From Thysanoteuthis rhombus (lineage: Eukaryota; Mollusca; Cephalopoda; Oegopsida; Thysanoteuthidae), in NCBI GenBank assembly GCA_963457665.1, contig OY735215.1:41355825-41419824 (forward strand): a DNA stretch of 64,000 nt, written 5' to 3'. Below the pieces are notes generated by a model. The model saw only the letters and a program-made list of their open reading frames with translations. It did no database searches and was not told where the DNA came from. The stretch's first letter is position 1. Each line of letters begins with the position of its first letter. The translations under genes were made by a program, and so were the position numbers. Positions 16,188-62,009 of this stretch are shown here, one piece after another.

Positions 16188-16482
16188 ACTGTGGCCTAAG
16201 TCATACCAAGGACTTTGAAAATGGTGCTCAATGCCTCTCCTCTAAGCACTCTGCACAAGGATTGGGGTTGGAGAACCACTCTTCCACCATATCACATTGA
16301 ATATACCAGTTCTTGTAAGATCACTTGAACAACTTCAAGCCTGGTCAGTACCTAGATGGGTGACCACTGGGGATACCGGGTGCTGCAAAGAAGAACTCTG
16401 AAGCTGTGAGATGCCTGGCAAGCCAGAAGTGGATCTTATCAAAATTGCCTATGTGTACCTAACTCAGCAACACTCTCAATAA
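16188..16482 (+). mobile_element. SINE with 5S-rRNA-like segment, copy 1
   Basis: A central block (AAGTCATACCAAGGACTTTG, AAGCACTCTGCACAAGGATT) is followed at about 16303-16395 by a sequence like the 3' half of 5S rRNA. AAGATCACTTGAACAACTTC, GCCTGGTCAGTACCTAGATG and GGTGACCACTGGGGATACCG correspond to the 5S internal control region. A tail block, GCCTGGCAAGCCAGAAGTGG and CAGCAACACTCTCAATAAGG, ends the copy. The tRNA-like head is largely missing. Confidence 0.7.
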
Positions 16483-20624: not shown

Positions 20625-20952
20625 ATTAATATGTCTTAGTGGTACAGAGCTCATCTCCAGTTCCGTAGGCCACGGTTCAATCCACGACCAAGTCATACCA
20701 AAGACTTTGAAAATGTAACTGAATGTCTCCCAACTAAGCACTCAGCACAAGGAATAGGCTTGAGTGACCTCCCCCTAAGGCCACTGGGGTAATGGCCTAA
20801 TCACATTGGGTACATTAGTTCTCATAAGATCACCCAAGTTAAGCAACGTTGAGCATGATCAGTACTTATATGGATGGCTATTGGGGAATAGTGTAAGCAA
20901 AAATAAGCTTTGATAGGCCTGGCAAGTCAGTTTTACTAACAATCACCATGTG
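20625..20952 (+). mobile_element. SINE with tRNA-like head and 5S-rRNA-like segment, copy 2
   Basis: Order seen: a tRNA-like head with an A-box-like TCTTAGTGGTACAGAGCTC and a B-box GGTTCAATCC (20673-20682). Next is the block AAGTCATACCAAAGACTTTG to TAAGCACTCAGCACAAGG. Then comes a 5S-like segment (AAGATCACCCAAGTTAAGCA, ACGTTGAGCATGATCAGTAC, TTATATGGATGGCTATTGGG) and the tail GCCTGGCAAGTCAG. The head-then-5S order differs from SINEs whose 5S part comes first. Confidence 0.7.
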
Positions 20953-43528: not shown

Positions 43529-43614
43529 CTGAAGAAAATTTAAAATTCAAATTAGGAAGAAAGACTCTTTTGGTTTGATACATTTAACTGTTGGAGATAA
43601 ATACATTTCTTCTA

Positions 43615-44100
43615 CAGGTTGAGTATCCTCTTATTCGAAAAAAAACAAAATGCTCCGAAATCTGAAATTTTTCAAAAGTCAATATGACGTCACAAATGGG
43701 AAATTCTACACCTGACCTCACAGTTATTTGATATAAAGACAAGATACAAAGGTGATTTCCAAGACTTTATTCAACTCATTCTGATCTCAGAAAAAACAAG
43801 GTCATTTTTGTTTCACCCATCCGAAAATTGAAACTATATGTACATCTCAAACAGTAAAAGACAAAAACAAGTCCCCATCAAAACAATTTTGTTTTCTGAA
43901 AATTCAATGCACACAAACGATGAAAAAATATTGTACAAATTACCTTTAGATTATGTGTACAAAGTATACATGGAACATGAATGGTTTTTGTGCTTTGACT
44001 TGGGGTCCTCAATATCTCATCATATTACATAAATATTTCAAAATACCAAAACTTGAACACTTCTGGTTCCAGACATATCAGATAAGGGATACTCAATCTG
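43615..44100. mobile_element. pogo/Tigger-type MITE closely resembling mammalian MER2
   Basis: Ends CAGGTTGAGTATCC and, reverse complemented, CAGATTGAGTATCCCTTATC form the inverted repeat. TA flanks both sides (43613-43614, 44101-44102). The interior also follows what I remember of the mammalian MER2 (Tigger family) consensus: an AAATGCTCCGAAATCTGAAA block, TTCTACACCTGACCTCA, then ATTATGTGTACAAAGTATAC, GACTTGGGGTCCTCAATATC, and CACTTCTGGTTCCAGACATA before the right end. It lies just upstream of the exon at 43487-43528. No transposase is encoded. Confidence 0.85.
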
Positions 44101-45064
44101 TATTATGGAAATCAGAGGTCCACTTTCGATGAAAAAAAAGAGTATCTGTTTATTCCTGAAAAGCAAGGACCACAAAAGATTTACAATGGAGCACAATCCA
44201 AACATCCAATAATTTTCTCACTTTTTCTTCCTTGAAAGTTTGTATTTACGTACGTCTCACTTGATAAAGAAATAAAATCTGAAAACAAAGAATAATTTCT
44301 TCAATTCATTTTTCAATCCGCAAATAATGACGTATTTAGAGTGTGCAAAATTTCTCAGTGATAATTAGAGAAAATCATTTTTTCTTGAGAAACTTTTGAG
44401 CACACCTAATAAATCAAAAGGGAACTTTTCAGATCAAACTTCTTAATTAAAAAAAAAAATAAACTTCATTTGAGAAGTCAAGGAAAACATGGGAATATTT
44501 CATAAAAAATATCAGCTCGGAGACTCGTTTAAACTTGTTTCTTTATGAGAAAAAGCAAAAACAAATTCAAAATGGTAGTGAATTTACACCAAACTGCTAA
44601 TAAACAAAAAAGCAATAATATCTGACAATTCACAAGTTTCTTGGAATCTAAAAAAAAAACAAAGACATCAATAAAAGTTAGAAATATTTCATGCAAAGAA
44701 ATGAGTGTAGTCTTAGTAGACGCTAGTGTAAAATAACTCTCTGATTGATGGTGCAATCACAGGTGACAGGTAAAATGAAAATTTATGCTCATGAGCGAGT
44801 AGCATTCTCTTGTCAAAAGTGAAATGAACTTCTCCTGTCAGCTTTCAACTCAATCAGAATGAAGCACTGGCATATACAATATCAATATTTAGATTCAACT
44901 GTTTAAAAATGACAAGAGTCAGCAAGTTGTTAGTTTTTTTCTCAAGGAATGATACTAAACAATGATTATGAACAAGGGATGGCAACACTTTGCTCAGAAA
45001 TATAAGAACCATGGACAGATTTACCTCATAGATATAGATTTTAAGGTAAATAAATGTATCAATT
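44101..45064. other. No gene seen
   Basis: A+T-rich sequence with A-runs. The frame at 44529-44756 is low complexity with no motif. Confidence 0.5.
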
Positions 45065-54197: not shown

Positions 54198-55004
54198 AGA
54201 AATAAGCACTAAAAGGTTCTATCCTTCTTTGTATGTGCTTTTTTGTGTTCTAGTACTCCTGTCCAGATCGTTTTGTCTACAGACTTGAAAATCAACATCA
54301 GTACTGTTCTCCTCAAGAATTTCTAAAAAAAATTTCTATTTTTCTTTATTTTTGAAAAAAAAGTTTTTTCGACCATTTTTGGGGGACAGGTTTAATAATA
54401 ACATTCAGAGATCATAAATGGAATTTTTTCAGACTACACTCATTCTCTGATGGAATTTCTTCACATGACTTCAAATTTAGGTGATACGGTTGTTCAATTG
54501 TTGACTGTGATGGCAAGTTTCCAATTTTCTTACATTTTTTCATATTATCACATAGGATATAGACCTACTGATTCATTGAGTTGATACAAGCTCTAATTTC
54601 GACTCTTCTTTGATCTTTGAAGCCATATACATTACTTGTTATCAGATACGTAATGGGAAAATACATTGCTCTTTTGCTTTTATTTACTTTCTGAAATGTT
54701 TCATGTTTTCCTTCCAAGAGAATGAGGTTGAAAATCCTCTGGATATTTTTCAAACATTGATATAGTCAAATCCTCCAAATGTGAATGAGTTTCTCTTCTA
54801 CAAGCTAGCATAATACGTTTGTTTTTTGTTTTTTTTTCCCTTTTAAATACGAAACAGGCATTAACAACAATACAGGTATAACATATCAAAGAAAATAAAT
54901 TATAATCCCTTGAGCAAAAAACAATTAACGAAATAATGGTTATACATTAGATTTTTTTTTTTTTAAATTCTCATTACCTGCCTAAAATCAGTCTTTTCTT
55001 TATG

Positions 55005-56170
55005 TAGCTGAGTACATAAGTTTCTTTTTGTAGTTGAGTATATAATAACAAGTTTCTTTATGTAGTTGAGTATATAATAACAAGTTTCTTTATGTAGTTG
55101 AGTATATAATAACAAGTTTCTTTATGTAGTTGAGTATATAATAACAAGTTTCTTTATGTAGTTGAGTATATAATAACAAGTTTCTTTATGTAGTTGAGTA
55201 TATAATAACAAGTTTCTTTATGTAGTTGAGTATATAATAACAAGTTTCTTTATGTAGTTGAGTATATAATAACAAGTTTCTTTATGTAGTTGAGTATATA
55301 ATAACAAGTTTCTTTATGTAGTTGAGTATATAATAACAAGTTTCTTTATGTAGTTGAGTATATAATAACAAGTTTCTTTATGTAGTTGAGTATATAATAA
55401 CAAGTTTCTTTATGTAGTTGAGTATATAATAACAAGTTTCTTTATGTAGTTGAGTATATAATAACAAGTTTCTTTATGTAGTTGAGTATATAATAACAAG
55501 TTTCTTTAATTAGTTGAGTATATGATAACAAGTTTCTTTATGTAGTTGAGTATATAATAACAAGTTTCTTTATGTAGTTGAGTATATAATAACAAGTTTC
55601 TTTATGTAGTTGAGTATATAATAACAAGTTTCTTTATGTAGTTGAGTATATAATAACAAGTTTCTTTATGTAGTTGAGTATATAATAACAAGTTTCTTTA
55701 TGTAGTTGAGTATATAATAACAAGTTTCTTTATGTAGTTGAGTATATAATAACAAGTTTCTTTATGTAGTTGAGTATATAATAACAAGTTTCTTTATGTA
55801 GTTGAGTATATAATAACAAGTTTCTTTATGTAGTTGAGTATATAATAACAAGTTTCTTTATGTAGTTGAGTATATAATAACAAGTTTCTTTAATTAGTTG
55901 AGTATATAATAAGTTTCTTTTTGTAGTTGAGTATATAATAACAAGTTTCTTTATTCAGTTGAGTATATGAGAAGTTTTTTTTTGAAGTTCAGTATATGAT
56001 AACAAGTTTCTTTATTTAGTTGAGTCTATGATAACAAGTTTCTTTATTTAGTTGAGTATATAATCACAAGTTTCTTTATTTAGTTGAGTATATGATAACA
56101 AGTTTCTTTATATAGTTGAGCATATAATAACAAGTTTCTTCATTTAGTTGAGTATATGATAACAAGTTTC
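55005..56170. repeat. Minisatellite array, 32-bp unit, about 36 copies
   Basis: The unit AAGTTTCTTTATGTAGTTGA plus GTATATAATAAC repeats head to tail. The core (about 55046-55890) is almost perfectly uniform, with a single variant unit near 55507 (TTTAATTAG, then GATAACA). The right third (55890-56170) is diverged and includes shortened units and TTTAGTTGAG variants. The left edge is diverged too. This is the expected pattern for an array growing or homogenising in the middle. No ORF runs through it. Confidence 0.97.
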
Positions 56171-61560: not shown

Positions 61561-61664
61561 AGGAGAAAAAAAAGAATTGGAAAGAGTAATTATTTCATCC
61601 ATAACTTGGATGCTTCAATGACTTACATTGACAGAGTTTTCAAACACAATCTTCAATGGAAAAG

Positions 61665-61908
61665 AGAAAATTGCCTTCAGTATAGAGGAGAAAGTTGCCT
61701 TCGGCAGAGAGGAGAAAGTTGCCTTCAGTAGAGAGGAGAAAGTTGCCTTCGGCAGAGAGGAGAAAGTTGCCTTCAGTATGAAGGAGAAAGTTGCCTTCAG
61801 TAGAGAGGAGAAAGTTGCTTTTGGTAAAGAGGAGAAAGTTGCCTTCGGTAAAGAGGAGAAAGTTGCCTTCGGTAAAGAGGAGAAAGCTGCCTTTGGTAGA
61901 AAAGATAA
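61665..61908. repeat. Minisatellite, 24-bp unit, about 10 copies
   Basis: The unit GAGGAGAAAGTTGCCTTCGG followed by TAAA/CAGA/TAGA repeats with small changes. Because 24 divides by three, several frames stay open on both strands: on plus (61628-61957) it reads as EEKVAFGK/EEKVAFSR repeats, and on minus two frames are also open. Openness on both strands argues against coding. Related single units lie outside the array at 61503-61560. Confidence 0.9.
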
Positions 61909-62009
61909 AGTTACAGTAGCAGAACACACTATAAGCCATGTGGTTAAAATAGCATAATCTGTGAGATGGTAGAGAGTAGAGTGACTTCTATGAATGTGAA
62001 TTTCCATTT

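What the first reader, a model, noticed from the sequence alone, without database searches (positions are those of the whole stretch)
43615..44100. Tigger element resembling mammalian MER2 along its whole length
Both ends, the TA target duplication and several internal non-coding blocks (TTCTACACCTGACCTCA, GACTTGGGGTCC, CACTTCTGGTTCCAGACATA) follow the mammalian MER2 consensus as I remember it. Such similarity of non-coding DNA between an apparent invertebrate and mammals is unexpected under vertical descent. It suggests horizontal transfer of a pogo/Tigger family, or that the host is closer to vertebrates than other features suggest.
Basis: partly seen in the sequence, partly recalled or inferred. 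Interest (0 to 1): 0.7.

Follow-up and report, generated by a model that had tools for sequence, protein, structure and literature searches.

The report
Mammal-type jumping gene in a squid
A short, now-dead DNA transposon in an oceanic squid genome is nearly the same, even in its non-coding parts, as the mammalian repeat MER2 as recalled from memory, so this jumping gene very probably crossed between distant animal lineages instead of being inherited from their common ancestor.

Summary
Window 43615-44100 is a 486-nt non-autonomous Tigger-type element with about 22-nt inverted ends and TA target duplications. The host is an oegopsid squid: its 20,544-nt mitochondrial contig uses the invertebrate code and has COX1-COX2-(ATP8)-ATP6 and COX3 duplicated. 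The squid carries hundreds of old copies. No mammalian MER2 record could be found, so the comparator is MER2 as I recall it. A consensus of 10 squid copies fetched only after that text was typed matches 307 contiguous nt of it at 93.5% (94.9% outside CpG). Where the window copy departs from the squid consensus (36 sites), recalled MER2 sides with the consensus at 35. Single squid copies differ from their consensus by about 14-15%, more than the two consensuses differ. COX1 protein is only 76% identical to a chain taken to be mammalian. Vertical descent cannot explain this; horizontal transfer of a longer parent element, direct or through other hosts, can. A meant negative control, recalled Tigger1, also matched, so two mammalian Tigger families may be shared; a clean negative control from another mammalian family could not be obtained. 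No autonomous partner was found. Direction, carrier and date are unknown.

The parts
43613..43614 (.). TA target-site duplication, left
   Evidence: Sequence. Across 40 extracts, TA precedes 19 of the 25 left ends recognised with up to 2 substitutions.
43615..43634 (+). left terminal inverted repeat
   Evidence: 91% match over 22 nt, flanking TA included, to the other end.
43615..43720 (+). left arm collinear with recalled MER2 positions 1-110
   Evidence: BLAST 77%, E 9e-20. The squid consensus of 40 copies is identical at 97 of 110 nt, 90.6% of 96 non-CpG sites.
43721..43887 (+). squid subfamily A internal block, not in the recalled 350-nt MER2
   Evidence: Shared by many squid copies; absent from the recalled MER2 in the alignment.
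43888..43918 (+). remnant of the longer internal block, overlapping the start of the right arm
   Evidence: 84% of 31 nt to the recalled longer mammalian piece. Fuller in L036 (85% of 108 nt) and in the consensus of 10 newly fetched copies (90.7% of 108 nt).
43907..44100 (+). right arm collinear with recalled MER2 positions 141-350
   Evidence: BLAST 73%, E 1e-29. Squid right-arm consensus of 9 copies: 93.6% of 203 sites; of 10 newly fetched copies: 95% of 222 columns.
44081..44100 (-). right terminal inverted repeat
44101..44102 (.). TA target-site duplication, right
   Evidence: Sequence. Across 40 extracts, TA follows 14 of the 22 right ends recognised with up to 2 substitutions.

Best explanation
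The window holds one dead copy of a non-autonomous Tigger (Tc1/mariner, pogo group) family of an oegopsid squid. The family's master sequence equals that of mammalian MER2 to within about 4-10% outside CpG sites. A longer parent element moved horizontally between the ancestor of this squid and the eutherian lineage, either directly or from a shared third source. In each host it left differently deleted short derivatives, which a Tigger transposase acting in trans cut and pasted into TA sites, and which then decayed. Shown here: anatomy, TA sites, copy family, decay, host phylum, and near-identity to MER2 as recalled. Inferred: mobilisation in trans by a transposase, that a longer parent was what crossed, direction, carrier and date.
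For: The subfamily B consensus, from 10 copies fetched only, matches recalled MER2 129-350 at 95% of 222 columns and 1-64 at 90.6%; joined with the recalled longer piece it is 93.5% of 307 nt (94.9% of 294 non-CpG sites, K2P 0.053), score 508 against 29 for the best of 500 shuffles. (2) At 36 sites where the window copy differs from the squid consensus, recalled MER2 agrees with the consensus at 35 and with the window at 1. (3) Squid copies lie at K2P 0.146 (sd 0.032, 40 copies) and 0.138 (sd 0.027, 10 copies) from their consensus, more than the two consensuses differ. (4) Two stretches in which recalled MER2 and the squid consensus already agreed have 22 and 268 genome matches with up to 3 mismatches, reversed controls 0 and 0; this counts copies and is not a further test of the recall. 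(5) Host mitochondrion of oegopsid type. (6) COX1 protein is identical at only 382 of 503 residues to PDB chain 8d4t_N, taken to be mammalian. (7) A second mammalian family, Tigger1 as recalled, also matches: 40 places scored of 93 candidates, 71-88% identity. (8) Tigger transfers between Eutheria and arthropods are in print (PMC9219625, section 3.3).
Against: The mammalian sequences are recalled, not fetched: scans of viral contigs and of bacterial and archaeal genomes, a phage search and a search of paper text gave no real MER2. No negative control from a mammalian family came out negative: Tigger1 matched and MER5A did not complete. The window copy alone is only 73-77% identical to recalled MER2, below the usual 80% rule (recalled). 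No autonomous partner was found: 0 of 21 DDE_1 loci examined, out of 150 scored, carry MER2-like arms, and no transposase remnant was seen in 79 loci (19 of them contig starts without the element) plus the window. The 40 aligned copies are the best scorers of 420 candidates, so the decay estimate is biased low. Other cephalopods and other animals could not be searched.
Confidence: 0.86

Rival explanations
1. Vertical descent: the family was in the bilaterian ancestor and both lineages kept it.
For: Tigger occurs in many animal phyla (PMC9219625), and the squid genome itself holds many diverse DDE_1 genes (150 scored of 604 candidates). PMC8967140 judged cephalopod repeat homology to be as well explained by vertical descent (passage seen).
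Against: The shared parts are non-coding, copies have decayed by about 14-15%, yet the two master sequences differ by only about 4-10% outside CpG. Over more than 500 My (recalled) unconstrained DNA would not stay alignable. COX1 protein, under strong constraint, is only 76% identical.
Confidence: 0.05
2. The likeness is an artefact of memory: the MER2 I recall was shaped by the window or by copies that I had read.
For: MER2 was typed after the window and eight copies had been read, and the longer piece was typed after L036 had been printed. A further recalled extension matched nothing, so my recall is not fully reliable.
Against: Recalled letters agree with the squid consensus at 35 of 36 sites where the window differs, and at 8 of 10 sites where L036 differs from the subfamily B consensus. 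Ten copies fetched only give a consensus 95% identical to recalled MER2 over 222 columns.
Confidence: 0.06
3. Mammalian DNA contaminates the squid assembly.
For: Contamination is a common cause of such matches (recalled).
Against: Copies lie on many large contigs, share internal blocks absent from recalled MER2, and are only 67-84% identical to the query copies. The window is 30-35% GC in every 4-kb step.
Confidence: 0.01
4. Only short terminal repeats are shared, as between unrelated Tigger families, and the rest is chance.
For: Tigger families often share CAG-type ends (recalled).
Against: With 25 nt removed from each end the internal score is 111 against a shuffle maximum of 38. Consensus matches run for 222 columns and 307 nt.
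Confidence: 0.01

Closest known systems
MER2 (mammalian Tigger-type non-autonomous element; listed under Mariner/Tc1 in PMC5753468, passage)
   Same: Ends, TA target, order and letters of both arms: 88-91% on the left arm and 93-97% on the right arm at consensus level, against the sequence as recalled.
   Different: Squid subfamily A has an extra internal block of roughly 170-190 nt plus a further block. Squid subfamily B is 508 nt, with about 137 nt unlike MER2 between a 64-nt left arm and the longer block. Recalled MER2 is 350 nt. So the deletion derivatives differ.
Tigger1 (mammalian, autonomous; recalled)
   Same: Same superfamily. Its recalled 5' end also finds copies in this squid genome.
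   Different: Different ends and internal sequence; a separate family from the window element.
Tigger horizontal transfers between Eutheria and arthropods, fishes and reptiles (PMC9219625)
   Same: Same kind of event: Tigger elements more alike than host genes.
   Different: That study reports Eutheria-arthropod as the only transfer between two phyla that it detected. It lists Tigger in 8 mollusc species, and its main text does not hold the words MER2, cephalopod or octopus.

Membership tests
Tigger / pogo non-autonomous element | terminal inverted repeats of about 20-25 nt starting CAG | tested here: met
   22-nt arms (flanking TA included) at 91% in the window copy; family consensuses run CAGGTTGAG...CTCAACCTG.
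Tigger / pogo non-autonomous element | TA target-site duplication | tested here: met
   Window TA/TA; 19 of 25 recognised left ends and 14 of 22 recognised right ends among 40 extracts.
Tigger / pogo non-autonomous element | mobilised by a DDE_1 Tigger transposase | tested here: inconclusive
   The host has many DDE_1 genes (150 scored), but 0 of 21 examined loci has matching arms.
MER2 | at least 80% identity over at least 80% of the consensus length (family level; rule recalled) | tested here: met
   Squid consensuses cover recalled MER2 1-110 and 129-350 at about 88% and 94%, or 1-64 and 129-350 at 91% and 95%. The comparator is recalled.
MER2 | the window copy by itself at least 80% identical | tested here: not met
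   77% and 73% in the two arms; it is a decayed copy, K2P 0.145-0.161 from the squid consensus.
MER2 | significant hit to the Dfam/Repbase MER2 model | not testable with these tools
   No Dfam model or mammalian genome is held; indirect searches found none.
MER2 | same internal deletion junction as mammalian MER2 | tested here: not met
   Squid subfamilies A and B have other internal blocks. So this is the same element lineage, not the same deletion derivative.

The most novel reading that the evidence does not exclude
At least two Tigger families best known from placental mammals, MER2 and Tigger1, were active in the ancestors of an oceanic squid with master sequences close to those of early eutherians. 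This would mean repeated or linked transfer of DNA transposons between a cephalopod and a mammalian lineage, or a wide wave through many hosts that included both.
Probability: 0.73. Interest if true: 0.82.

Novelty: new member of a known kind. Interest (0 to 1): 0.74.

Why it matters
MER2 and Tigger1 are treated as mammalian families (TIGGER1 is put after the marsupial-placental split and before the placental radiation: PMC3517439, passages). If squids carry the same master sequences, these families were part of a wider spread of DNA transposons, and the question of where the eutherian Tigger wave came from becomes testable with marine genomes. It would also add a mammal-mollusc case to the one cross-phylum Tigger transfer reported in PMC9219625.

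Tried and rejected
Searches for a real mammalian MER2 in viral contigs, bacterial and archaeal genomes, phages and paper text found nothing. An autonomous partner was sought through DDE_1: 15 loci with long open frames and 6 decayed ones, 21 of 150 scored, carried no MER2-like arms, and 15 transposases matched nothing in 79 loci (60 with copies, 4 of these places fetched twice; 19 contig starts) and the window. A recalled extension of the mammalian sequence did not match. The recalled Tigger1 end was meant as a negative control but matched. A hAT control (recalled MER5A) was asked for seven times and never answered, so a clean negative control from another mammalian family is missing.

Contamination, chance, shared ends only, and a host close to vertebrates were considered and rejected on the evidence given.

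Full report
What is in the window. The element spans 43615-44100, flanked by TA on both sides, with inverted ends TACAGGTTGAGTATCC / GGATACTCAATCTGTA. No stop-to-stop frame of 110 codons or more overlaps it, and no second copy is seen in the window (best other match E 0.03). The window is 30-35% GC in 4-kb steps with strong CpG depletion (observed/expected 0.31).

The host. The window lies on contig C18 of a 2.73-Gb assembly of 514 contigs. From the lengths sampled, C1 (94.6 Mb) to C48 (30.5 Mb) are chromosome-scale and C49 is 0.74 Mb, so 48 chromosomes are likely; I did not see every length. Contig C514 (20,544 nt) is the mitochondrion. Its COX1 reads with the invertebrate code, with six AGA codons inside it, and its identity was confirmed against solved structures; the other genes were named by eye. 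COX1-COX2-(ATP8)-ATP6 (3,150 nt, 99.0% identical) and COX3 (1,325 nt, 98.6%) are present twice. The abstract of PMC7800340, seen in the listing, describes duplicated cox1, cox2, cox3, atp6, atp8 and tRNA-Asp in a 20,851-bp mitogenome of an oegopsid squid. The host is therefore a mollusc, an oceanic squid, and not a relative of vertebrates.

The family. A DNA search with the element scored 40 places, the window's own included, out of 420 first-look candidates. All 40 were fetched with flanks and all 40 align to the left-arm consensus, at mean K2P 0.146 (sd 0.032, CpG sites left out). They are the best scorers, so the true mean is probably higher. Where ends are recognisable with up to 2 substitutions, TA stands before 19 of 25 left ends and after 14 of 22 right ends. 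A second search with the longest copy, L036, scored 40 of 936 candidates; 20 were fetched, 4 of them places already held (L063, L070, L073, L077). Ten new ones define a 508-nt subfamily B, with copies at K2P 0.138 (sd 0.027) over the right part. A 30-mer of the left arm has 268 places with up to 3 mismatches, from which I estimate roughly 530-1,190 copies keeping that piece if divergence is 12-17%.

Comparison with mammalian MER2. No mammalian DNA or Dfam model is held; searches for stray MER2 found none. I therefore used MER2 as I recall it (350 nt), typed. The window copy matches it collinearly in both arms, at 77% and 73%; with the ends removed the score is 111 against a shuffle maximum of 38. 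Because the squid copies have decayed, the proper comparison is between consensuses. The left-arm consensus of 40 copies is identical at 97 of 110 positions. The right-arm consensus of 9 copies, picked from the 40 for long right arms, is identical at 93.6% of 203 positions. A consensus of 11 copies from the second search is identical at 197 of 204 ungapped positions with 18 gap columns; one of the 11, L077, is the same place as L012 of the earlier set. The subfamily B consensus, from 10 copies none of which was held, includes the missing 17-nt stretch and is 95% identical over 222 columns of the right arm and 90.6% over the first 64 nt. A longer mammalian-type piece, typed, matches this B consensus at 90.7% of 108 positions. 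Joined, the B consensus and the recalled longer form agree at 93.5% of 307 sites, or 94.9% of 294 non-CpG sites, K2P 0.053.

Is the recall sound? MER2 was typed after the window and eight copies had been read, and the longer piece after L036 had been printed, so circularity had to be tested. At 36 sites where the window differs from the squid consensus, the recalled MER2 agrees with the consensus at 35. At 10 sites where L036 differs from the B consensus, the recalled piece agrees with the consensus at 8 and with L036 at 2. The 28-mer and 30-mer searches (22 and 268 places, 1 and 2 exact, reversed controls 0) used stretches in which the recalled MER2 and the squid consensus were already known to agree, so they count copies and do not test the recall again. 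A further recalled extension matched nothing, so my memory of the family is not perfect. The control that I intended, the end of Tigger1, turned out to match: 2 places with 3 mismatches for a 28-mer (reversed control 0) and 40 scored of 93 candidates for 250 nt, at 71-88% identity over about 115-200 nt. A hAT control did not complete.

Interpretation. The two master sequences differ by about 4-10% outside CpG sites, whereas single squid copies have drifted 14-15% from theirs, and the strongly constrained COX1 protein is identical at only 382 of 503 residues to chain 8d4t_N, which scores like 1occ_A, recalled as bovine. Non-coding DNA inherited separately for more than 500 My (recalled) could not look like this. 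Horizontal transfer fits all of these results. The internal deletions differ between recalled MER2 and squid subfamilies A and B, which suggests that a longer parent crossed and that the short derivatives arose in each host. This step, the carrier, the direction and the date are inferred. No autonomous partner was found among 21 DDE_1 loci examined of 150 scored or in the 79 loci and the window compared.

Literature. PMC9219625 (outline, section 3.3 and passages seen) reports 13 Tigger transfer events with Eutheria-arthropods as the only pair of different phyla, and Tigger in 8 mollusc species. PMC8967140 (passages) found Tigger among the cephalopod families with most Dfam hits, the giant squid being the species with most matches overall; the hits that it reports to distant taxa are mostly to aquatic vertebrates, and it favours vertical descent without excluding transfer. 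PMC6962438 (passages) gives DNA elements as 11% of the giant squid genome. PMC3517439 (passages) places TIGGER1 expansion between the marsupial split and the placental radiation. The listings (20 of 26 shown; 12 of 16 shown; 15 of 168 shown) showed, in titles and starts of abstracts, no report of MER2 in a cephalopod or of a mammal-cephalopod Tigger transfer; this covers only the held library.

Noticed in passing
host genome G000, many contigs, e.g. C15:30780524-30780714: Copies matching the recalled non-coding 5' end of mammalian Tigger1 (40 scored of 93 candidates, 71-88% identity over about 115-200 nt): a second mammalian Tigger family in the squid. The letters of these copies could not be fetched.
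   Followed up: partly
window 16279-16391 (+): 5S rRNA model match just over its threshold (38.5 against 38 bits); the surrounding sequence 16198-16426 is repeated at 20690-20930 (67%). It may be a 5S-derived SINE.
   Followed up: no
window 54995-56170: Tandem array of a 32-nt unit, about 36 copies, 95% matches.
   Followed up: no
window 61664-61912: 24-nt tandem repeat lying in three overlapping frames of 111 to 140 codons, one of which reads as an eight-residue repeat; no gene evidence.
   Followed up: no
L083, L087, L088, L090 (contig C17) and other places: Several long open DDE_1 (Tigger/jerky-type) frames lie on contig C17. L087 and L090 are 78% alike in protein. They may be host genes or young transposons.
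   Followed up: no
L060-L062 (contig C514): Squid mitochondrial genome with two nearly identical copies of COX1-COX2-(ATP8)-ATP6 and of COX3.
   Followed up: yes
L104 (C18:2872900-2874100): One squid copy, picked for its exact 28-nt match, holds a run of 43 nt identical to the recalled MER2.
   Followed up: partly
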